From assembly GCF_003570905.1 (NCBI RefSeq), contig NZ_QXJM01000037.1, positions 1 through 64,000 on the forward strand: a stretch of 64,000 nt of DNA, read 5' to 3'. Positions 22,521-58,339 of the stretch are shown here, piece by piece. The DNA comes from Cohnella faecalis (GTDB lineage: Bacteria; Bacillota; Bacilli; Paenibacillales; Paenibacillaceae). The notes beneath the pieces are model-generated. The model did no database searches, had not been told where the DNA came from, and worked only from the letters and a program-made list of their open reading frames with translations. Every line of letters begins with the position of its first letter. Position 1 is the first letter of the stretch. Made by a program: the position numbers and the translations under genes.

Positions 22521-23293
22521 GTGTTGGAGCGTAATCGGGACGAGGAACTAAACGGGCAAGCATACATAGATTCCGAAGGACAAACGAAAGAAGACGAGCG
22601 CTCCGCATCCGGACTAAGACAAGAGGCAAGCGACTACGAGCCGGCTGCTCGCGAAGAGGATGACGGAACGGCGCCCCCTCCTTCGGGCGCGAATCCGAAC
22701 GGACCGAAGCCATCGAAAGCGGCGGGTGAGCTTTTCGAATGGATTAAGGCACTTGCTATCGCAGGTTTGCTCGTATTCGTCATTCGCTGGTTTCTGGTCA
22801 GCCCGTTTATCGTCGACGGGCCTTCGATGGAGCCTAACTTTTGGGATCACGAACGGATTATCGTCAATAAAATCATTTACGATATTCGCGAACCGAAACG
22901 CGGAGAAGTCATCGTGTTCCACGTACCGGATGAAGGCCGCGATTTCATCAAGCGGGTTATCGGAGTTCCGGGCGACGAAGTGAAGGTCGACGGGGACGAT
23001 GTATACATCAACGGCGCCAAAATTGAGGAATCTTATTTGAAGAAAGCGATCGAGGAAGCGCATGCGGCCGGTCCCGATTCGCTCTATAATCCGCACAACG
23101 GGGAAGCAGCGACTTCCCGAACTTGGAATTCCCTGACGGCAAAGTGCCGGAAGGCATGCTATTCGTCATGGGCGATCATCGCTCCAACAGCGAGGACAGC
23201 CGGATGATCGGCTTTATTCCGCAATCCCGTGTCGTTGGACGCGCCGATTTGGTGTTCTGGCCGATCAAGGATTTCCATTTTGTATCACACTGA
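22521..23293 (+). CDS. lepB: Signal peptidase I (frameshift near 23106)
   Basis: Membrane-anchored Ser/Lys protease that removes signal peptides. The first 70 residues are acidic and hydrophilic, longer than in many relatives. One membrane anchor follows, then the catalytic serine motif DGPSMEPN and the lysine motif FIKRVIGVPGDEV. After 23106 the frame changes; the downstream frame carries the signature GDHRSNSEDSR and ends with FWPIKDF. One base seems lost near GGGGAAGCAGCGAC. GTG start with a weak GAGG site upstream. Placement between rplS and ylqF is typical of Paenibacillaceae. Confidence 0.9.
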
Positions 23294-23358
23294 TGAGTCG
23301 CCAATGAACATGGTATGAATCCCTCATATCCGGGACTCGCTGAATAGGGGGATGGTCC

Positions 23359-24244
23359 ATGACCATACAAGTTTCCCGGCATATGACCCGAGCAACGACG
23401 TCAAATCGAAGAAAGCTCAAGCTGATCGACGTCTATTCGACTCTGGATCCCGAATTCCGCAATCGAGCCGCAATCCGATGATCGACGAAATCGTGGGCGG
23501 CAAGCGCGGCTCATTCTGCTTAACAAAGCGGATTTGGCGGATGCGGAGCAAACGACTCGCTGGAACAAGCATTTCAAGGCCCAAGGCCATGAGACGCTTG
23601 CCATCGACGCGAGCAACGGTACGGGCGTCAAAGATATTTCGGGCAAGGTGAAAGAGCTTTTGCGCGAGAAAATCGAGCGTCAACTGAGCAAAGGGTTGAA
23701 GCCGAGAGCGGCGCGGGCGTTGATCGTCGGTATTCCTAACGTCGGCAAGTCGACCTTGATTAATCGGCTTGCCGGACGCAATGTCGCGGCGACGGGCGAT
23801 CGACCGGGCGTAACGAAAGGTCAGCAATGGATTCGCACGGGAAGCGACATCGAGCTACTGGACACGCCGGGCATTCTGTGGCCAAGGTTTGAGGACCCCG
23901 AGGTTGGCAACCGCCTCGCGGCTACGGGCGCGATTAAAGAAGAGGTGCTCCATATCGACGAAGTCGCCTGCTTTGTGCTGAAGGAGCTGGCTCCCCGGTA
24001 TGGCGACGTTCTCTCCGAACGTTACGGCTTGGATAGCTTGCCTTCGTCGCTGCCGGATTTGCAATCGGCCATCGAGGTGCTGGAAGCGATTGGACGGCGC
24101 AGGGGATGTTTGGCTGGCGGAGGGCATATCGATTACGAGAAAGCAGCCGGCGTTCTGCTGCGCGACCTTCGGTCAGGCAAGCTGGGCCGAATTACGCTGG
24201 AAGGTCCGGAAGAAGCGATGGAGCCGATCGGAGCTTCGGAGTAA
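23359..24244 (+). CDS. ylqF: Ribosome biogenesis GTPase YlqF/RbgA (5' part corrupted by several indels)
   Basis: Circularly permuted GTPase acting late in 50S assembly. Motif order is the permuted one: NKAD (G4) near the N-terminus, then the P-loop GIPNVGKST (G1), then DTPG (G3). From about 23365 to 23525 several single bases are missing, so the expected MTIQWFPGHM start appears only as scattered fragments in different frames. From 23534 on the frame is open to the TAA at 24244. Adjacent to rplS and lepB, as in relatives; a strong terminator follows. Confidence 0.9.
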
Positions 24245-24259
24245 GCAAACTGGATACAT

Positions 24260-24293
24260 CCGTCGGATGATTGCGCTCCGGCGGCTTTTTTTT
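24260..24293 (+). terminator. Rho-independent terminator after ylqF
   Basis: Stem CCGTCGGA / TCCGGCGG (all eight positions pair, one as G-T) with a 9-base loop, followed by C and eight T. It ends the rplS-lepB-ylqF transcript. Confidence 0.85.
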
Positions 24294-24381
24294 GTCGAAA
24301 GGCGGCATCGCGGTCTTGGCAATAGTGCGGAATTGACGGACAATGTCAATAACAATAGGAATGGAAGAGGGCGGGAATGTC

Positions 24382-25008
24382 ATGGAAGAAACGAATCGGC
24401 TGCAATTCGAGACGGAATGCTGGAGCCGGGATATACCGCCGTCGCCGGTATCGATGAAGTAGGCCGCGGTTGTCTGTTCGGAGACGTTGTAGCCGCTGCG
24501 GTCATTATGCCTGTCGGTTTTATTTTGGAAGGAGTTAACGATTCCAAGCAATTAAGCGAAAAAAAAGCGGGACCTGCTGTACGAGGAAATATTGAAAACG
24601 GCGACATCGTGGTCTGTGGCGAGAGTGGATGCGGCGACGATCGACCGGATCAATATTCGCCAGGCTTCCCGGCTTGCGATGAAAAAGGCGGTCGAGGCTT
24701 TGAGCGTAAAGCCGGATTACTTGCTTGTGGATGCGGAGTCGGTAGAGCTTGATACGAACCAGACGGCTATCGTCAAAGGCGATTTTCTCAGCCAATCGAT
24801 CGGCGCGGCATCCATCGTGGCCAAGGTGACGAGGGACAGGCTATGCCAGGAAGTATGGGATACTCTTCATCCGGGCTATGGCATTGCCGGGCACAAGGGC
24901 TACGGGACCAAGGAGCATCGCGAGGCGATTATAAGACTCGGTCCAACGCCGATGCATAGGCAAAGCTTTCTAAAGGGGCTGTACGTCGTGCAACAGGAAT
25001 TGTTCTAG
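24382..25008 (+). CDS. rnhB: Ribonuclease HII (two frameshifts in this sequence)
   Basis: Endonuclease cleaving RNA in RNA-DNA hybrids and single ribonucleotides in DNA. The catalytic motif AGIDEVGRG sits near the start, then [17 protein letters not shown] and HKGYGTKEH. The N-terminal 14 codons from ATG 24382 are in another frame than the active-site part (indel near 24420). The A-run near 24560 (eight A, seven expected) shifts the frame again. The C-terminal 138 codons are open to 25008. It is shorter at the N-terminus than Bacillus RnhB. Homopolymer error is the simplest explanation. Confidence 0.88.
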
Positions 25009-25103
25009 AGGGATAGAGAAGAGCATTTGCATTCATTTTCGCGTTTGCCAAGCCGATACATAGAAGTAAGGAAATCGCTTCGTTCGTGAGGGGGGAATAC
25101 CGC

Positions 25104-26981
25104 GTGAGCATGAACATCGGACCAATGCTTCGGGCGCTGCTAAGCGAAGGACAGCCGGCCGAGGGGAGCAAGGCGCTGGAGCTAAGAATAGGGCAAATCG
25201 TCCGAGGCGTCCTCTTGGAGCTGCTGGACAATCAGGAAGCTATAGTGAGCATTAACGGCGTTAACGTGAGGGCAAGGCTCGATGCGGATATGCCTGTCGG
25301 TCGCGGAACGCTGCTGCAGGTGCAGACGAGCTCGGGCGGCGGCTTGGTGGCGCTTAAGCCTCTTGCGGACCTGTCGGAAATGATGCCGGAGGAAGGGCTG
25401 AAGGACGTGCTTAAGTCGTTCAGCCTTCCGGAGCAAAAATGGGCCATGGAGCTTGTGAGAGGGTTGAAAAAGGACGGTTATCCGATCTCTCGGGATACGG
25501 CGTCCTTTTTCGCCTCGGCGGCAAGTCTGAAGCCGGCAACGACCGATTCGCAAAGCTGGATGGCGGCTTCGGACGTAGCGTTCCGACGAGGGCTCGCTCC
25601 GACGGAAGCGACGATCGGCTCGCTGAGGCAAGCTTTGTTCGGCGCTCCGCTTCACGAATCGATCGCGAACGTGCAGACTGAGCTTGCCGCATGGCAAAGC
25701 TCGGGCAATGCTGCGTCAAGCGAGGCGTCCGAGCTTGGGAAAAAGCTGCAAACGCTCCTCGCGCGAGGAGCGGAGTACATGGTTCGAGCCGAGGCGGGGA
25801 AGGAGGGCCAGCCGACTTTTGGAGACGAAGCGAAAAAGTCGGTAGAAAGCTCTCGGCCGCAACCCGACGGGATTGCGCGGAATGCAGATTCGGCTCGGGC
25901 GAACCCGCGTGGATCGGCAGTAAATGTTGCGGATCTCTCGGTTCAGGAAAATGTGAAAGCGGCGATACAGGCTCGAACGGATAATGAGGGCGATCCGATT
26001 GAGCGGTCTGCGCCGCGGAGCGGATTGGCCGAAGCTGGCGGCGAACGAGCTTCGGCGATGCCGCGAGCGACAACATCGACAAGCTCTCAAGAGAATGCGG
26101 CTGCGGCTAATCGACAAGCCTCCTTGAGTTCAAGCGAGCGTTCTGCTTCGGGAGAGGCCGCATCGGGGAAAACCGGCAACTCCGCTGCGGAAGGTTCCAG
26201 ACCGGACGGCAGACAGCCGACTGCGGCCGCTCCTCGGCAGGAAGGCGCTTGGATCGGACGATTCCTGCAGTGGATCGGCGCTGGGCATGAGCGCAATGCT
26301 CTTCATGCATCCGATCAGAGACTGGGCGGGGATCTAACGTTTCCCGCTTCGGCGGGAACGGATTTGGACGCAACGGCGGAACAAGCATCGAACCAGCACG
26401 GCGATTCGATGAAAAGCGCTTTGCTCGCCTTATCTTCCCGTGACGATATACCTCCTGCATTACGGGATGCCGCCCAAACGCTGGTCAATCAAATAACCGG
26501 ACAGCAATTGCTGTTGGCTTCCGAGCGCAACGGGACTTCGCCGTTCAGTCATATGACGTTATTCGTGCCAATGAAGACGGCGGATGGCGAGACGACTGCT
26601 ACCGTTCATGTCCAGACGCGGCGCGGACGCCGAGGAGAGTGGGACGCCGACAATTGCCGGCTGTTATTCGATCTGCGCATGCGAAATCTGGGAGATACGG
26701 TCGTCGACGTTCAGGTGGTCGATCGTATCGTATCGCTTAAGCTGATGAACGATTTTCCAGGTATGCAGGATTTATTGGAACAAGCCAGGAACGAGCTGTC
26801 GTCGGGAATAAGAGAGGCGGGCTTCCAGCTTCTGTCGTTGACTGTATCGCCGCTGCCTTCGCTTCGTTCGGGTATCGAAGGGGCGGATGGAGCAGCGGGA
26901 ACGGACAATCCGAGAGGGGATTACCCTCCGTCATCTGCGTTTGCCTCTAAGCCTTACAAGGGAGTTGATTTTCGGGCATGA
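25104..26981 (+). CDS. ylqG: YlqG-like protein with FliK-type C-terminal domain
   Basis: 625-aa protein in the position of Bacillus ylqG. An N-terminal conserved part (about 1-190) contains ELRIGQIVRG and INGVNVRARLD. A long middle region (about 200-440) is rich in Ala, Ser, Glu and Gly and probably disordered. The C-terminal 150 residues resemble the flagellar hook-length control domain (MTLFVPMKTADGE, RMRNLGDTVVDVQVVD). GTG start chosen because GAGGGGGG lies just upstream. Its stop overlaps the ylqH start (ATGA). Function unproven; see the YlqG/YlqH finding. Confidence 0.8.
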   Translation: MSMNIGPMLRALLSEGQPAEGSKALELRIGQIVRGVLLELLDNQEAIVSINGVNVRARLDADMPVGRGTLLQVQTSSGGGLVALKPLADLSEMMPEEGLKDVLKSFSLPEQKWAMELVRGLKKDGYPISRDTASFFASAASLKPATTDSQSWMAASDVAFRRGLAPTEATIGSLRQALFGAPLHESIANVQTELAAWQSSGNAASSEASELGKKLQTLLARGAEYMVRAEAGKEGQPTFGDEAKKSVESSRPQPDGIARNADSARANPRGSAVNVADLSVQENVKAAIQARTDNEGDPIERSAPRSGLAEAGGERASAMPRATTSTSSQENAAAANRQASLSSSERSASGEAASGKTGNSAAEGSRPDGRQPTAAAPRQEGAWIGRFLQWIGAGHERNALHASDQRLGGDLTFPASAGTDLDATAEQASNQHGDSMKSALLALSSRDDIPPALRDAAQTLVNQITGQQLLLASERNGTSPFSHMTLFVPMKTADGETTATVHVQTRRGRRGEWDADNCRLLFDLRMRNLGDTVVDVQVVDRIVSLKLMNDFPGMQDLLEQARNELSSGIREAGFQLLSLTVSPLPSLRSGIEGADGAAGTDNPRGDYPPSSAFASKPYKGVDFRA

Positions 26982-27285
26982 GCCGACAACCGTCCGAACG
27001 GACATTACCGAAAAAAGCGGTTGCTCTCAAGTACGAGCCGGAGCACCGAACGGCCCCGATTGTCATCGCCAAAGGCCAAGGCGTTATCGCGGACGAAATA
27101 TTGCGCCGCGCCCAGGATAACGGAATACCGGTGCAAGAAGACGCTTCGCTTGTGGAAGTGCTGTCCAAGCTCGACCTGGAGCAAGAAATCCCCCCGAGCT
27201 CTATCGGCTTGTCGCGGAAGTGCTTAGCTTCGTATACCGTTCGGATAAGCTCGCGACAAGAAGTGAAGGAGGGGGGATCGGTTGA
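26978..27285 (+). CDS. ylqH: YlqH-like protein, FlhB C-terminal-domain homologue (one-base frameshift)
   Basis: About 103 aa after correction. It resembles only the cytoplasmic tail of FlhB: KKAVALKYEP, APIVIAKGQGVIADEI, and a tail matching LYRLVAEVLSFVYR. The NPTH autocleavage motif of true FlhB is not present. One C is missing in the run at 27190-27195 (six C, seven needed), shifting the last 35 codons. Restored, it ends at TGA 27283-27285, overlapping the next start. No membrane segments. Likely partner of YlqG. Confidence 0.85.
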
Positions 27286-27692
27286 ACGACTCTTTCGGAT
27301 CGAATCGGCGTACGACATCCGTTCCGTCCGCTAGGGGTAGAAGGCTGACCGGATTAAGAGGCGAGGAGGCGGCCGCCTCTTATTTGCAATCTCTGGGGCT
27401 GGTCATAGTGGAAAGGAATTGGCGCTGCCGTTCAGGCGAGATCGATCTAATCGCTCTGGAGGAAGCCGTTTTGGTGTTCGTGGAAGTACGTTCGCGATCG
27501 AGCACGAATAGATTCGGGACAGCCATCGAAGCGATTACTCCGCGCAAATGCCGACAAGTCCGAGACATTGCTTCCATTTATATGAGAATGAAGGGCGAAA
27601 GCAATCGGTCCGTCCGATTCGATGCCGTAGCCGTTACTTTCAGCGCGGACGGCGAAGTGGCTGAAATCAAACACATACCCGGCGCTTTCTAA
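27282..27692 (+). CDS. YraN/UPF0102 family nuclease-like protein
   Basis: 136-aa protein with a restriction-endonuclease-like core: GEEAAASYL, the catalytic-type GEIDLIAL with a following VFVEVRSR (D-ExK-like arrangement, here ExR) and a C-terminal VRFDAVAV. Members are predicted Holliday-junction or structure-related nucleases; the role is not firmly known. TTG start overlaps the ylqH stop and follows AGGAGGGGGG. The family lysine of the ExK motif appears as Arg in VEVRSR, which is usual for this family. Confidence 0.85.
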   Translation: MNDSFGSNRRTTSVPSARGRRLTGLRGEEAAASYLQSLGLVIVERNWRCRSGEIDLIALEEAVLVFVEVRSRSSTNRFGTAIEAITPRKCRQVRDIASIYMRMKGESNRSVRFDAVAVTFSADGEVAEIKHIPGAF

Positions 27693-27699
27693 TCATTGT

Positions 27700-27955
27700 T
27701 GATTGTGGGGGAACAACGGTAGCGCATCCCGTGCATCGCACGGAGATTATCTGGAGAGCGCCAACAGTGGGAGCATGTCCCATACATTGAGTGGAAGTTA
27801 GCTGGAGAGCGCCAACAGTTGGAGCACGTCCCATACATTGAGTGGAAGTTAGCTGGAGAGCGCCAACAGTGGGAGCACATCCCGTACATGGAGCAGAAAT
27901 TAGCTGGAAAGCGTCATCAGTGGGAGCACGTCCCACACATCGAGCGGTGCCAATA
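27700..27955. repeat. Second tandem array, five 51-bp units (array 2)
   Basis: Units begin CTGGAGAGCGCCAACAG at 27751, 27802, 27853 and 27904 (last one diverged), with a more diverged unit before 27751. Period is exactly 51 bp. Each unit contains a small inverted repeat TGGGA-GCACG-TCCCA. The sequence is unrelated to array 1 but has the same period. The 27693-28036 gap holds nothing else I can identify. The minus strand is open with a 17-residue period, but no ribosome site supports translation. Confidence 0.85.
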
Positions 27956-28036
27956 ATTGCAGCAAGCTCCTTATTACATCTGCCTATTGAGCGGGCTTGG
28001 AATCCTGCTTGTCGTATATAAATTGCAAGAAACGTG

Positions 28037-28084
28037 CAAAAGGTGCCGCACCGCCAACTCAAATTGGCTGGTCGTTAGGCACCT
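28037..28084 (-). terminator. Terminator of the comM gene
   Basis: On the minus strand AAGGTGCC pairs with GGCACCTT, with inner CCAA/TTGG pairing, followed by TTTTGCACGTTTC. It lies just past the comM stop at 28093. Confidence 0.7.
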
Positions 28085-29768: not shown

Positions 29769-30290
29769 TTAGTTAAAGCCGGCTACCGCAACGCCGTAAA
29801 TCGCGATCGGTCCGGTCAATATGAAGGCTTCGGACGGAACGTCTAGCGCAACGTACAGAGTGTAGCGGATAAGACTTTGGGCTGCAGCAGCCGATGGGGG
29901 AAAGTCTGTCGTCGTGATGGAGACGGGAATAAGGGAAGTGTGCTTTTTTACGGGTCTGTATTCTTCCTGATAAATCACGGTGCCGGAGCCGAACGTTCCG
30001 TTGCCGCCGCGCTCAATCGTAAAAAGGACGGAGGCATGGGAGTCATGGTCGTGTTTGTCTTTTTTCTTATCCTTATGCTTATCCTTATCGTGCTTGTCTT
30101 TGGCATTGTGCAAGATGCCGACCGTACCCGATAATCCTACGCGTACCTTATCTTGGTTCGGAGTGCCGACTACAAGCGACGTCGATACTCCTAGATCGCC
30201 GATCAATAATGGAACCGTCGTAAGAACCGTCGTTCCCGATGGGCTGTCGAGCTGCTGGGAAACCATCATATCCAAAAACTGAATGGCCAC
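29769..30290 (-). CDS. Unrecognised 173-aa protein with a Lys/Asp/His-rich tract
   Basis: I do not recognise this protein. GTG start preceded by AAGGAGGTG at good spacing, so it is probably expressed. Residues 1-60 look like beta strands rich in Val/Thr/Gly. Residues 62-85 are almost only Lys, Asp and His (DKHDKDKHKDKKKD core). Residues 86-173 are again beta-like and end with IYGVAVAGFN. No signal peptide or membrane segment is visible. The composition recalls some spore-surface or metal-binding proteins, but that is only a guess. Tandem with comM on the minus strand. Confidence 0.75.
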   Translation of the reverse strand: MAIQFLDMMVSQQLDSPSGTTVLTTVPLLIGDLGVSTSLVVGTPNQDKVRVGLSGTVGILHNAKDKHDKDKHKDKKKDKHDHDSHASVLFTIERGGNGTFGSGTVIYQEEYRPVKKHTSLIPVSITTTDFPPSAAAAQSLIRYTLYVALDVPSEAFILTGPIAIYGVAVAGFN

Positions 30291-44545: not shown

Positions 44546-45380
44546 TCTGATCAAATCCGGTCGCGTCATCTCGCTGGAGGATCTGAAAAGGCTTGAAAAT
44601 GCCAGGAAATTCGAGCTTCCACCGCAAAATATTTCTTCCAATCCGGATATCGGCGAAGGAGAATCGTCGATAGATGTCGAAACACAATCGATGAGAGACC
44701 GCATATTGCAGGACGCCGAGCAAGCGGCGCGGCAAATCGTCGAAGCCTCGCAGGAAACGGCGCGGCAATTGGTTGCGGATGCTCGTTCCGAAGCGGACGA
44801 CTGGTGGCGCGAGCGGCGGGCGGAAGACTCTCAAGTCGCGGAAGAAGCTAGGCAGTCCGGCTACGATCAAGGCTATAAAGAGGGAATTGGCCAAGCCGAG
44901 CGCGACCTTGCGAAACAATGGGACGCGAGATTGAACGAAGCGAATGCAATCGTTCGACAGGCTTACATAACAAAGGACAATACGATAGCGGAAGCCGAAA
45001 GGTTTCTGGTGGAGCTCAGCTGCGCGATTACCGAGAAAATCATTCTCGCGAAAGTAGCCGAAGCGCCTGAAATGGCCGTCAACATGTTTGCGAGGGCGTT
45101 GGCCCGCCGCAAGGAGCAGGGAGTCATCACTCTGTGCGTATCTCCGTCGCAGTTCGGCTTTGTGCAAGCCGCGAAAGAGGAGCTCATGCTCGTGATCGAT
45201 TCCCAGGCCGAGCTGCAAATCGTGCCCGATGCCTCGATTAAGGACGGTGGCTGTATCGTCCGCTCGGCATTCGGAAGCATCGATGCCCGGATCGACACAC
45301 AATTGGACGCTATTCGCGAAGAGCTGCTGAGAGTAGCCGCTCAAGCGCGCGAGGAGGAGTCTGGCGATGGCGCTCCTTGA
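44538..45380 (+). CDS. fliH: Flagellar assembly protein FliH
   Basis: 280-aa regulator/stator of the export ATPase FliI. N-terminal variable part, a coiled-coil middle rich in Glu/Gln/Ala (about 55-130) with the GYDQGYKEGI motif, and a C-terminal domain related to V-type ATPase subunit E (VSPSQFGFV, DASIKDGGCIVRSAFGSIDA). TTG start overlaps the fliG end and has GGAGGAG upstream. Its end overlaps fliI. Confidence 0.92.
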   Translation: MSNLIKSGRVISLEDLKRLENARKFELPPQNISSNPDIGEGESSIDVETQSMRDRILQDAEQAARQIVEASQETARQLVADARSEADDWWRERRAEDSQVAEEARQSGYDQGYKEGIGQAERDLAKQWDARLNEANAIVRQAYITKDNTIAEAERFLVELSCAITEKIILAKVAEAPEMAVNMFARALARRKEQGVITLCVSPSQFGFVQAAKEELMLVIDSQAELQIVPDASIKDGGCIVRSAFGSIDARIDTQLDAIREELLRVAAQAREEESGDGAP

Positions 45381-46684
45381 TTTATCCAAATACGAGGAAG
45401 CTCTCGGCTCTATCGATCCCGTTCGTGTCAACGGCAAGGTGACGCAAGTAATCGGACTGACCGTAGAATCGGAAGGCCCCGACGTCGCAATCGGCGAGGT
45501 GTGCTCGATTCATCCGATTAAAGGCGGTTCGCCGATTTTGGCGGAAGTCGTCGGCTTTCGGAATAATCGGGTTTTGCTTATGCCTCTCGGCGAGCTCATG
45601 TCCATCGGCCCCGGATGCGACGTCGTCGCAACGGGGAGACCGCTTACCGTGCAAGTGGGATCGGAGCTGCTTGGGAAAGTTCTAGACGGACTCGGCAGAC
45701 CTTTGGACGGCTCCAGGCTGCCGATTAGAATGCCGCACGCATCCACTCACACAGCGCCGAGCAATCCGCTCACGCGGCCTCGGGTTGTCGAGCCGCTAGG
45801 AACGGGAGTCCGGGCTATCGATGGATTGCTCACCGTCGGCCAAGGCCAACGCGTTGGCATATTCGCCGGCTCGGGAGTCGGGAAAAGCACATTGCTGGGG
45901 ATGGTAGCGCGCAACACATCAGCCGACGTTAACGTCATCGCTCTCATAGGCGAACGCGGGCGCGAAGTTCTTGAATTCATCGAGAAGGACTTGGGCCCGA
46001 AGGATTGGCCCGCTCGGTCGTCATCGTTGCGACGTCCGACCAGCCGGCGCTCGTCCGGATCAAGGGTGCGCTCATCGCTACTGCGATCGCGGAATATTTT
46101 CGCGACAGGGGCATGAATGTGATGCTCATGATGGATTCCGTAACCCGGTATGCGATGGCTCTAAGGGAAGTGGGGCTTGCCATCGGAGAACCGCCGGCTA
46201 CGCGCGGATACACCCATCGGTATTCGCGGCGCTGCCCAAGCTGCTCGAAAGAGCGGGGACGGGGCCGACCGGCTCGATTACGGCCTTTTATACCGTTCTC
46301 GTAGACGGCGACGACATGAACGAACCGATTGCGGACGCCGTAAGGGGAATATTGGACGGGCATATCGTACTGAACCGGAACATCGCGAACAAAGGCCATT
46401 TCCCGGCAATTGACGTTCTGTCCAGCGTCAGCCGCGTAATGAACGACATCGTCGAGGATGATCAGAAGGACGCGGCCGAGTCCTTAAAGCGGCTATTATC
46501 GGTCTATCGGGATTCGGAAGATCTGATCAATATCGGAGCGTACCAACGAGGCTCGAACCCGGAAATCGACAAGGCCATTCAAGCTATCGACCAGATTAAT
46601 GCGTATACGAGACAGAAGACGAACGAGAAAGTATCGCTGCAGGAAGCCCAGCAAAGGTTAATTATCGATTTTTTCGGGAGATGA
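45367..46684 (+). CDS. fliI: Flagellum-specific ATPase FliI (two one-base frameshifts)
   Basis: 439 aa after correction, the Bacillus length. Hexameric ATPase of flagellar export. P-loop [14 protein letters not shown]; then [20 protein letters not shown]. One base is missing near 45999 (before GGATTGGCC) and another near 46209 (ACCCATCGG, where YTPSVF is expected). The C-terminal [15 protein letters not shown] is in the third segment. Start ATG 45367 overlaps fliH and has GAGGAG upstream. Confidence 0.93.
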
Positions 46685-48180: not shown

Positions 48181-49584
48181 ATGATGAATACGATCGGAGT
48201 CGTAGCAAACTCAAGCTCGGCGGGAAGCTCGGCAGGAAGCGGCAAAGCTGGAAGCACGTCGGGAGCATTCGCCGGCATGCTCGTTCAAGTGTTGGACGGC
48301 AGCGGCGCAGCGAAGTCCGCACCGGCCAAAACGGCGCTTCCCGTCGGATTGATTGGAATCGTCGGACAATTGCCTGCGATGCCTGCGGACGATGCCGCTT
48401 TGCAAGAAACGTTGGCTCTGCTTGACGAGCTCGTTAATCAATTGAACGATCAGGAGTCCAAAGAGGAGCCGGATAGCGATGTTGCCGATCAATTGACGGC
48501 GTTGCTGGCTGCTTTGCAGCTGCTCCTTGGCGAACCTGCGGCAGACATGACGGACACGAACGCGAGCGAGGATGCCGAGTCGGCCGAACCTTCGATCGAG
48601 ACGATCAACATCGGTCAGGAAGTTCGGAAGGTTGTGCAAACGCTTGGCGAGACGATCGGGAAGCTTTCGGCCGGGCTGGCGCAAGGACAACAGTCCCCTG
48701 CGGCGGTATCCGTGCTTGCCCTTCAATTGCAAAGCGTTTTGGAGTCTTGGGAAGGCATGCTGACTCAAGATAAAGCAGGCGGAAAGGCAGTCGCTAACGC
48801 AGACTCCGCCCAGGCATCGGTTCCTTCGGCGTCCGTCGGAGAAGCTTCCGCGAAGAAGTCGGAAACGCCGGACGAGACCGCAGCCGCGGTCGCGACGGAA
48901 GTCAAAAAAACGGCACAACCGCTTCGGGAAGCAGCCTGGCGTCCTGTAAACGCAGTTCATACGGAAACGCCGGATGGCGAGTCCATCGAGCCGCAGCAGC
49001 TGGCTTCCAGTATCGAAGCAGAACCGAAATCGACCTCGACGGCACCTGTATGGTCGCTTCAGATGAACGATGCGCTTAAAGGAACGGCTCCAAGCGCGCC
49101 GCAGCTTCCGGCTCAGATTCCGGTTCAACAGTTCGCGGATCAAATGGAGAAATTTCTTGTGAAGCAGTTCGTTCTTACGCAAGGAAACGGCATTTCGGAA
49201 GCGAAGATCACACTTCATCCGGAGCACTTGGGCCAAGTCGATATTAAGATTGTATTGCAGAACGGCCAACTGACCGCTCAATTCGTTACCGAGCATCTGA
49301 CGGCGAGAGATCTTCTGGAGAATCAGCTGTCGCAGCTTCGCACAGCCCTTCAAGGCCAGGGACTTCAAGTCGACCGGATGGAAGTCGTTCAACAGACGTC
49401 ATCTTCAGCGGGAGCTTCGCTGCAGCAGGATCAGAGACAGTCGGGATCCGGCGGGCAAGGCGACGGCAACAATTCGGGCAACAAGGACGGCGGCAGCGGC
49501 GAGGACTTATTCGAAGCGGAACTGGAAAGAACGACTTTCCTAAGGGAATTCGGTTACGGCAGTTCGCTTAACGTAACGGCATAA
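48181..49584 (+). CDS. fliK: Flagellar hook-length control protein FliK
   Basis: 467 aa. N-terminal region is Ser/Gly/Ala rich and low in complexity, the middle is acidic. The C-terminal Flg_hook domain (about 320-430) contains LHPEHLGQVDIKIVLQNGQL and LENQLSQLRTALQGQGLQV. FliK measures the hook and triggers the FlhB specificity switch. GGAGGTG precedes the ATG. The last 40 residues are Gly/Ser/Asn rich. Confidence 0.92.
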   Translation: MMNTIGVVANSSSAGSSAGSGKAGSTSGAFAGMLVQVLDGSGAAKSAPAKTALPVGLIGIVGQLPAMPADDAALQETLALLDELVNQLNDQESKEEPDSDVADQLTALLAALQLLLGEPAADMTDTNASEDAESAEPSIETINIGQEVRKVVQTLGETIGKLSAGLAQGQQSPAAVSVLALQLQSVLESWEGMLTQDKAGGKAVANADSAQASVPSASVGEASAKKSETPDETAAAVATEVKKTAQPLREAAWRPVNAVHTETPDGESIEPQQLASSIEAEPKSTSTAPVWSLQMNDALKGTAPSAPQLPAQIPVQQFADQMEKFLVKQFVLTQGNGISEAKITLHPEHLGQVDIKIVLQNGQLTAQFVTEHLTARDLLENQLSQLRTALQGQGLQVDRMEVVQQTSSSAGASLQQDQRQSGSGGQGDGNNSGNKDGGSGEDLFEAELERTTFLREFGYGSSLNVTA

Positions 49585-57244: not shown

Positions 57245-58339
57245 GTGTCCCGTCTTCGTCACCGTCTCGACTTGCAGTTGTTCGCCGGCGAAAAAACGGA
57301 AAAGGCGACGCCGAAAAAACGGCAGGACACCCGCAACAAGGGTCAGGTCGCCTCCAGTCCGGACGTTCCCGGGGCATTGATCATGCTAGGAAGTCTGACT
57401 TGTTTTCTTATGTTGGGCTCCTTCTTTCAAACTCGGCTCTTAGCGATGTTTTCCGACGTGTTCAGGCACCGAATGAGCATGGATATTACCGAAACCAACG
57501 TTATGAACCTATTCGGTCATTACGTCCTGCAAATTCTTATTTTTCTCGCGCCGCTGTTCGTCATCGTATTCGTTATCATTTTTGCGGCCAATTACGCTCA
57601 AATCGGTTGGCTGTTCACGACCGAGACTCTAAAGCCCCAATTCAATAAGCTGAACCCGATTTCGGGAGCCAAACAAATTTTCAGCATGCGCTCCGTCGTC
57701 GAGTTTTTGAAAAGCTCCCTAAAGCTGACGGTAGTCGGCGTAGTCGTGTATTTGATGCTCTGGTCGGAACGAGATCGCTTTCTCGGACTCGCTCACGTAC
57801 CGATCGAAGATATTTTTGCTTTTGCGGCGGAATTGACGATCAAGCTTGGAATGTTCGTGTCCGCCATTTTGTTCGTCATCGCCATCGGCGACTTCATTTA
57901 TCAGAAATACGAGCATGAGAAAAGCTTGCGGATGAGCAAGCAGGACATTAAGGACGAGCACAAAAACATCGAAGGCGACCCGCTCATCAAAGGTAAAATC
58001 AGGGAACGCCAGCGTCGAATGGCGCTTATGCGAATGATGCAGGAAGTTCCGAAAGCCGACGTCGTTATCACGAACCCGACGCATTACGCAGTCGCTCTGC
58101 AATATGACGGGACGAAGATGGATGCTCCGACCGTCATGGCCAAAGGGCAGGATTATCTCGCTCTGCGAATCCGGGAAATTGCCAAAAAAAACGATGTCGT
58201 AATTATGGAAAACAAGCCGCTCGCCCGCGGGCTTTACGAACGAACGGAAATCGGGGACACCGTTCCGGGAGATTTGTTCCAAGCCGTCGCGGAAGTTCTG
58301 GCATACGTATATCGGCTGAAAGGTCGCCGCAAAGCCTAG
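57245..58339 (+). CDS. flhB: Flagellar export switch protein FlhB
   Basis: 364 aa. N-terminal soluble stretch with KTEKATPKKRQD, four membrane segments (about 40-215), and a cytoplasmic tail with the autocleavage motif NPTH (TNPTHYAVAL). Cleavage there switches export from hook to filament proteins. GTG start behind GAGGAGGTGCC. Compare the tail-only protein YlqH at 26978, which lacks NPTH. Confidence 0.96.
   Translation: MSRLRHRLDLQLFAGEKTEKATPKKRQDTRNKGQVASSPDVPGALIMLGSLTCFLMLGSFFQTRLLAMFSDVFRHRMSMDITETNVMNLFGHYVLQILIFLAPLFVIVFVIIFAANYAQIGWLFTTETLKPQFNKLNPISGAKQIFSMRSVVEFLKSSLKLTVVGVVVYLMLWSERDRFLGLAHVPIEDIFAFAAELTIKLGMFVSAILFVIAIGDFIYQKYEHEKSLRMSKQDIKDEHKNIEGDPLIKGKIRERQRRMALMRMMQEVPKADVVITNPTHYAVALQYDGTKMDAPTVMAKGQDYLALRIREIAKKNDVVIMENKPLARGLYERTEIGDTVPGDLFQAVAEVLAYVYRLKGRRKA

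What the first reader, a model, noticed from the sequence alone, without database searches (positions are those of the whole stretch)
25104..27285. YlqG/YlqH: a stand-alone FliK-like and FlhB-tail-like pair outside the flagellar operon
YlqG ends with a FliK-type domain and YlqH is essentially the FlhB cytoplasmic tail without NPTH; their genes overlap by four bases. True FliK (48181) and FlhB (57245, with NPTH) are also encoded. A coupled pair mimicking the ruler/switch interaction suggests a modulator of export switching or a soluble decoy. Bacillus has the pair but its function is unclear to me.
Basis: partly seen in the sequence, partly recalled or inferred. Interest (0 to 1): 0.5.

Follow-up and report, generated by a model that had tools for sequence, protein, structure and literature searches.

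The report
Paired second copy of flagellar switch
Two overlapping genes encode extra, soluble versions of the two proteins that tell a growing flagellum to stop building its hook and start its filament; the pair is old, widespread and tied to flagella, but what it does is still untested.

Summary
The pair is real. YlqG (25104-26981) is a FliK relative, YlqH (26978-27285) a relative of FlhB's C-terminal fragment; the genes overlap by four bases. lepB, rbgA, rnhB and fliI are broken too, so draft error is likely; relatives have intact copies.
The stated refuter was not met. In two surveys of 398 genomes, a second FlhB-tail match accompanies FlhB in 238 of 325 and 248 of 277 genomes; no genome without a flagellar export gene had one. 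In 40 genomes tested, a second FliK-like domain appeared only with YlqH and always beside it. YlqH forms one clade across phyla. Outside Bacillota the pair often lies among flagellar genes.
YlqG keeps FliK's last-five-residue switch tail, proposed to act on the cleaved FlhB fragment that YlqH resembles. YlqH keeps that fragment's core and lacks NPTH.
Best reading: an auxiliary specificity-switch module, YlqH a replaceable FlhB tail (like Helicobacter HP1575, called a "spare part") and YlqG its FliK-type partner. Binding and function are inferred; two AlphaFold models did not place the tail. The family is known; tail and co-inheritance make it testable.

The parts
25104..26981 (+). ylqG: FliK paralogue, 625 aa from GTG 25104 (ATG 25110 also possible)
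26658..26849 (+). FliK_C / T3S4 (Flg_hook)-like domain of YlqG
   Evidence: (PF02120, 26.8 bits, below the 29.8 cut-off); 33 of 72 YlqGs match Flg_hook at E<=1e-3
26964..26978 (+). C-terminal pentapeptide V-D-F-R-A of YlqG, placed like the FliK last-five-residue switch tail
   Evidence: family pattern; E. coli FliK ends VDIFA
26978..26981 (+). ATGA overlap of ylqG stop and ylqH start
   Evidence: the same -4 overlap in 34 of 42 Bacillota and 9 of 36 other loci
26978..27285 (+). ylqH: FlhB C-terminal-fragment (FlhB_CC) paralogue without NPTH; frame-shifted in this assembly at the C-run 27190-27195 (parts 26978-27193 and 27196-27285)
48181..49584 (+). true fliK of the flagellar operon (ends SSLNVTA)
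57245..58339 (+). true flhB with NPTH

Best explanation
[quoted passage not shown] YlqG is a FliK paralogue that keeps the switch (T3S4) fold and the FliK-type C-terminal pentapeptide. YlqH is a soluble, never-cleaved copy of the FlhB C-terminal fragment (FlhB_CC), i.e. the FlhX/TIGR00789 family. Most likely mechanism: YlqG binds YlqH through its T3S4 domain and tail as FliK acts on FlhB_CC, and YlqH can dock on the membrane part of FlhB in place of FlhB's own C-terminal fragment, so that the pair tunes or re-arms the early (rod/hook) export mode; YlqG would be the dedicated partner that loads or removes YlqH. Shown here: homology, fold, tail, occurrence with flagellar export genes, co-inheritance, single YlqH clade. 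Inferred: binding, docking on FlhB, and the direction of the effect.
For: Co-occurrence: phylum survey, 238 of 325 genomes with an FlhB-tail match have two or more, against none of the 73 without a TIGR00789 match (of the 87 with one match, G022 and G374 show it in a short, YlqH-like frame; of the 73, G201 has FlhA and a contig-edge FlhB piece). Class survey: 277 of 398 genomes have FlhB (or, for G741, FlhA); 248 have two or more matches, 28 FlhB only, and G741 has YlqH and FlhA with FlhB not called; the 121 others have no tail match. 22 of 24 genomes holding the pair, most outside Bacillota, have full FlhB. Co-inheritance: of 20 YlqH-bearing genomes 15 show a second Flg_hook match, each beside YlqH; of 20 without YlqH none does. 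Context: flagellar genes in the fetched flanks (4 kb or less) of 14 of 38 non-Bacillota loci by BLAST plus L096 by Pfam; rod-type proteins, flagellin and sigma-70-family factors by Pfam. One clade: YlqH against FlhB tails, 100/96. Fold: Foldseek FlhB_C 3b1s E 3.5e-6, TM 0.88 by target; PscP switch domain 5cuk prob 0.99 (E 0.048); FliK_C 2rrl prob 0.93 (E 0.13). Tail: 75 of 98 distinct upstream proteins end exactly in [VILF][DN][VILF]x[VIA], internal rate 0.0014; E. coli FliK ends VDIFA. Salmonella: the last five FliK residues are important for switching, and A405V suppresses an flhA mutant (PMC10965912 passages); they are proposed to engage and eject FlhB_CC, and loss of FlhB_CC together with Fluke locks late export (PMC13344023 abstract and section 14). 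Core: FlhB A-P kept (A 69, P 81 of 81), A-E 81 of 81. Precedent: H. pylori HP1575 'spare part' (title in a reference list).
Against: Two AlphaFold2 models of natural read-through chains folded both domains but left tail and linker at pLDDT under 50 (the L107 model has a 3-residue strand at the start of the tail, at low confidence), and pTM is only 0.48 and 0.46, so neither binding mode nor domain contact is supported. About a quarter of genomes with FlhB in the phylum survey show no second match, so the pair is not required for flagella. The papers found hold no ylqG or ylqH function study. YlqH differs from FlhB near the autocleavage site (R to E/Q, a one-residue deletion), so it may not dock on FlhB. 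Within-pair covariation between tail and YlqH gave only phylogeny-like signals. Only 9 of 27 FliK ends read here fit the strict tail pattern and 15 the loose one, so the tail is more regular in YlqG than in FliK. The window copy of ylqH is frame-shifted.
Confidence: 0.5

Rival explanations
1. Soluble decoy: the YlqG-YlqH pair (or YlqH alone) titrates FliK or early substrates and thereby delays or buffers the switch, never entering the export gate.
For: YlqH keeps the FlhB A-P and A-E core, which I recall as part of the early-substrate (gate-recognition-motif) pocket; the pocket on FlhB_C is described in PMC8983047 passages, without residue numbers there. YlqH matches only the cytoplasmic tail of the FlhB model; no transmembrane prediction was run.
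Against: Does not explain why a FliK-type partner with the switch tail is co-inherited. The HP1575 precedent, by its title, is replacement rather than titration.
Confidence: 0.25
2. YlqG is a second ruler or hook-length regulator that acts on FlhB itself, and YlqH is its cytoplasmic chaperone or cap that masks the tail until export.
For: YlqG has the T3S4-like fold plus tail; the genes overlap by four bases in 34 of 42 Bacillota loci, which suggests translational coupling.
Against: The YlqG tail has R/K at the penultimate position in 70 of 98 against 2 of 27 FliK ends read, suggesting a partner other than FlhB; the genome has one full FlhB-family protein, so there is no second export gate of this family for it to serve (FlhA was not searched in this genome).
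Confidence: 0.15
3. A housekeeping function unrelated to flagella, since in Bacillota the genes lie between rnhB and yraN or other non-flagellar genes.
For: Bacillota synteny, and no flagellar neighbour by BLAST in 42 of 42 Bacillota loci.
Against: No genome without a flagellar export gene had a stand-alone tail (121 and 73 genomes); flagellar-gene neighbourhoods in other phyla.
Confidence: 0.03
4. In this one organism ylqH is a true pseudogene, so the pair is decaying here.
For: Frame break in ylqH.
Against: lepB, rbgA, rnhB and fliI are broken in the same window, as expected of assembly indels; ylqH is in one frame in the six family members read.
Confidence: 0.1

Closest known systems
FlhX / HP1575 and the TIGR00789 'flhB_rel' family (B. 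subtilis YlqH)
   Same: Stand-alone FlhB C-terminal fragment without the membrane part and NPTH; one search includes a B. subtilis record with the pair (L105). The name YlqH and its equation with FlhX are recalled.
   Different: The window copy scores 73 bits against a 117-bit cut-off, being frame-shifted; but only 3 of 398 genomes exceed that cut-off at all.
FliK (hook-length control, T3S4 domain)
   Same: Flg_hook-like domain and phi-[DN]-phi-x-phi C-terminal tail.
   Different: Much weaker Pfam score; R/K at position -2 of the tail in most; gene paired with ylqH and apart from the flagellar operon in Bacillota.
FlhB C-terminal fragment (FlhB_CC / FlhB_CCD)
   Same: Fold and core residues.
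   Different: No membrane domain in the match, no NPTH, R to E/Q and one-residue deletion next to the cleavage site, separate clade.
'flhX-fliK' outside the main flagellar cluster of Nitratiruptor (PMC9321776, passage seen)
   Same: A fliK gene named together with a stand-alone FlhB tail gene.
   Different: Not compared by sequence here.

Membership tests
FliK family (T3S4 domain proteins) | Flg_hook / T3S4 domain | tested here: met
   Pfam match below the curated cut-off in the window; E<=1e-3 in 33 of 72 YlqGs; cross-phylum profiles hit FliK at 4e-12 and 8e-9; Foldseek PscP SS prob 0.99 and FliK_C prob 0.93 with weak E-values
FliK family (T3S4 domain proteins) | C-terminal pentapeptide needed for switching in Salmonella | tested here: met
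   75 of 98 strict, 86 of 98 loose pattern at the exact C-terminus; window VDFRA; presence tested, not function
FliK family (T3S4 domain proteins) | Secreted ruler that sets hook length | not testable with these tools
   needs mutants
FlhB | N-terminal transmembrane domain | tested here: not met
   YlqH matches only about positions 258-335 of Bac_export_2
FlhB | NPTH autocleavage motif | tested here: not met
   NPTH in 0 of 80 YlqH ORFs. FlhB itself varies: 25 NPTH, 9 other NPxH and one NPTQ among 35 read
FlhX / TIGR00789 (stand-alone FlhB_CC) | FlhB_CC domain as a separate small protein | tested here: met
   one clade 100/96; the window copy needs two frames
FlhX / TIGR00789 (stand-alone FlhB_CC) | TIGR00789 curated cut-off 117.35 bits | tested here: inconclusive
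   73.3 bits on the first frame only; 3 of 398 genomes pass, so the cut-off misses most members
FlhX / TIGR00789 (stand-alone FlhB_CC) | Replaces a deleted FlhB_CC in export | not testable with these tools
   reported for H. pylori HP1575, title only

The most novel reading that the evidence does not exclude
Strand exchange. The FliK/YlqG tail (phi-[DN]-phi-x-phi-COOH) resembles the FlhB strand just before the autocleavage site (A-D-V-[VI]-phi in 28 of 34 FlhBs with an NPxH motif). The tail may act by taking that strand's place in the FlhB_CC sheet. FliK would eject FlhB_CC in this way, and YlqG would hold YlqH, which lacks the strand, as a ready-made replacement cassette; the ylqG stop / ylqH start would then mimic the cleaved FlhB at the gene level.
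Probability: 0.15. Interest if true: 0.75.

Novelty: new member of a known kind. Interest (0 to 1): 0.42.

Why it matters
How FliK tells FlhB to change export specificity is a long-standing question. A natural, soluble, co-inherited copy of the two interacting parts, present in a B. subtilis genome (L105) and in most genomes with FlhB in two Bacillota surveys, offers a simple system for testing the FliK tail / FlhB fragment interaction outside the membrane. It also suggests that many bacteria carry a second layer of switch control. Whether Salmonella or E. coli lack it was not tested here beyond the control tally, which does not say.

Tried and rejected
Sigma-D lead: GCCGATAC at 25052-25059 upstream of ylqG looked like a sigma-D -10 box (consensus recalled). 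A first check for the exact string in relatives was too strict. A scored scan gives the window 3 mismatches to the two boxes, reached by 14% of random 170-base stretches. Of the six family relatives only L144 scores better (2 mismatches, 1.8% of random), and of seven other Bacillota loci none is unusual. Not supported.

AlphaFold2 of read-through chains: domains folded, tail not placed; the strand idea stays unproven. A first alignment with YlqG-only rows was misaligned and not used.

Within-pair covariation of tail and YlqH (72 pairs after dropping two duplicates, two loci without an upstream ORF, and L047, L072, L101 and L060; of these four, L101 and L060 do match the YlqG profile): top columns look phylogenetic; no conclusion.

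Independent FlhB duplications in each lineage: not favoured, given the single YlqH clade (few columns, bootstrap not settled; FlhB rows were taken only if NPTH or NPIH was found, 29 of 38 loci plus the window).

Flagellum-independent function: not favoured by the surveys. Caveats: 'two or more matches' was taken as FlhB plus YlqH, not every second match was inspected and only part of the matches was listed; at most five candidates per genome were scored; FlhA was checked only in ten doubtful genomes.

Weak PF01312 matches in G423, G540, G671, G698, G715, G769, G023 and G316, none with FlhA, lie outside the tail.

Literature: seven of ten searches used. None listed a ylqG or ylqH function study; the only B. 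subtilis ylqG passage I read is one point mutation in evolved strains (PMC11523185). Wand 2006 is not held.

Full report
Observation. The window lies in contig C31 of a 6.43 Mb draft (65 contigs, 92.2% complete). YlqG is the ORF 25104-26981 and YlqH begins at ATG 26978, overlapping as ATGA. YlqH matches TIGR00789 (1.4e-20) and the last quarter of the FlhB family model. YlqG's Flg_hook match is weak on its own (2.6e-5, under cut-off) but solid at family level: a profile built from non-Bacillota YlqGs finds window YlqG at 7e-15, window FliK at 4e-12 and the upstream proteins of 41 of 42 Bacillota loci; a Bacillota profile finds 29 of 36 non-Bacillota upstream proteins (misses L041, L047, L049, L072, L094, L096, L109) and E. 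coli FliK at 8e-9. True FliK and FlhB are present. Signal peptidase I, RbgA/YlqF, RNase HII and FliI in the same window are likewise incomplete or split, so I read this as draft error; six family relatives have ylqH in one frame.

Flagellar link. Each survey held 398 genomes, at least 95% complete except the window's own; the two share some genomes. Phylum: 325 genomes match the FlhB tail; 238 have two or more matches, 87 one (G022 and G374 in short, YlqH-like frames of 152 and 98 aa); 73 have none, among them G201, which has FlhA and a contig-edge FlhB piece. Class: 283 match PF01312; six are weak matches outside the tail without FlhA, leaving 277; 248 have two or more matches, 28 FlhB only, and G741 has YlqH and FlhA with FlhB not called; the 121 others show no tail match. 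A genome with no match at all lacks both proteins by definition; the telling point is that no genome showed the tail match without a flagellar export gene. Some lineages with FlhB lack the second match, so the pair is dispensable.

Co-inheritance. PF02120 in 20 YlqH-bearing and 20 YlqH-less genomes: 15 of 20 against 0 of 20 have a second match at E<=0.01, and all 15 lie next to YlqH (several below Pfam's cut-off). In four of the remaining five (G118, G290, G032, G091) I read a YlqG-like gene upstream of ylqH (L004, L023, L010, L146); G350 was not read. From the record titles I count 42 as Bacillota and 38 as other or unnamed. 78 of 80 have an upstream ORF in range; L047 and L072 have no YlqG-like one.

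Context. In Bacillota rnhB-like genes lie upstream and yraN- or dprA-region genes downstream in many loci, with the -4 overlap in 34 of 42 (some gene names by position, recalled from B. subtilis). In other phyla 14 of 38 loci have flagellar genes in the fetched flanks by BLAST against the window's and E. coli flagellar genes, for example rod-type proteins right after ylqH in L038 and L049 and flagellin near L096, checked by Pfam. By the same BLAST 0 of 42 Bacillota loci have one. So this is a flagellar pair that lies apart from the flagellar operon in Bacillota.

The tail. 98 distinct upstream proteins (loci): 75 end exactly with [VILF][DN][VILF]x[VIA], 86 with a looser form; the strict pattern occurs internally at 0.0014 per position. 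The twelve failures include upstream ORFs that look like wrong choices (L047, L072, L015). E. coli FliK ends VDIFA. Of 27 FliK ORFs read (of 30 loci; a few ends may be wrong frames) 9 fit the strict form and 15 the loose one. In Salmonella the last five FliK residues matter for switching (PMC10965912 passages, citing Minamino 2006). A 2026 study proposes that they engage and eject the cleaved FlhB C-terminal fragment, and that loss of this fragment together with Fluke locks late export (PMC13344023: abstract, section 14 and passages). YlqG's tail differs from FliK's by R/K at position -2: 70 of 98 against 2 of 27, p 1e-9 by Fisher's test without correction for relatedness.

YlqH against FlhB (81 YlqHs; 14 FlhBs, all Bacillota and chosen for having NPTH). 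Kept: A-P (A 69, P 81 of 81), A-E 81 of 81, then L/F. I recall these as part of the FlhB pocket for early substrates; the residue numbers were not found in the paper. Lost: NPTH (0 of 80 ORFs); the Arg of the FlhB 'PLAR' stretch becomes mostly E/Q; one residue is deleted. Counting from NPTH, these two places correspond to R313 and Y316 of EscU, mutated in PDB entries named (my counting, not a structural alignment). So YlqH looks like a tail that no longer needs autocleavage. FlhB itself varies at this motif: 25 of 35 read have NPTH. The tree gives YlqH as one clade, 100/96, with 36 YlqHs and 30 FlhBs (nine FlhB loci without NPTH/NPIH or readable ORF left out; bootstrap not settled).

Structure. 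Natural read-through chains of L076 and L107 gave mean pLDDT 76 and 72 with both domains formed and the tail not placed with confidence. Foldseek on the first: FlhB_C and needle-system tails on top, then PscP switch domain and FliK_C with weak E-values but high probability. The second model was not searched.

Mechanism. Best supported: a second, soluble switch couple, YlqH a replaceable FlhB tail and YlqG its FliK-type partner. Homology, fold, tail, co-inheritance and the link with flagellar genes are shown; binding, docking and the direction of the effect are inferred. The precedent is HP1575, named a 'spare part' for the deleted FlhB_CC domain in the title of Wand 2006, which I saw only in a reference list. 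FlhX is treated as a known export-associated component in PMC10746217 and PMC9321776 (passages).

Novelty. The family and the pairing are known in outline, so this is a new member of a known kind. What I did not find stated in the papers I searched is the conserved FliK-type tail of YlqG, the strict co-inheritance and the single YlqH clade; most subscription papers are not held, so this is weak evidence of absence.

Noticed in passing
window 22521-25008 and 45367-46684: lepB, rbgA (ylqF), rnhB and fliI are incomplete or split by frame changes, pointing to indel errors in this assembly.
   Followed up: partly
window 27667-28062 (- strand ORF): Between yraN and the next gene a probably spurious ORF shows a repeated peptide (CMG[RH]APTVGALQLTSTQ), hinting at tandem DNA repeats there.
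   Followed up: no
window 29769-30290 (- strand): ORF with a Lys/His/Asp-rich insert (KDKHDKDKHKDKKKDKHDHDSH).
   Followed up: no
   Followed up: partly
L191/L201 (G793) and L185/L202 (G791): Two full-length FlhB-type proteins in one genome, besides the stand-alone tail; L202 is very divergent.
   Followed up: no
L138 (FliK of unnamed YlqH-less genome G304): This FliK ends AVDVRV, i.e. with the YlqG-type basic residue, in a genome without YlqH.
   Followed up: no
window 49564-49584 (end of fliK): The window's own FliK also ends with a tail of the same type (SSLNVTA).
   Followed up: yes
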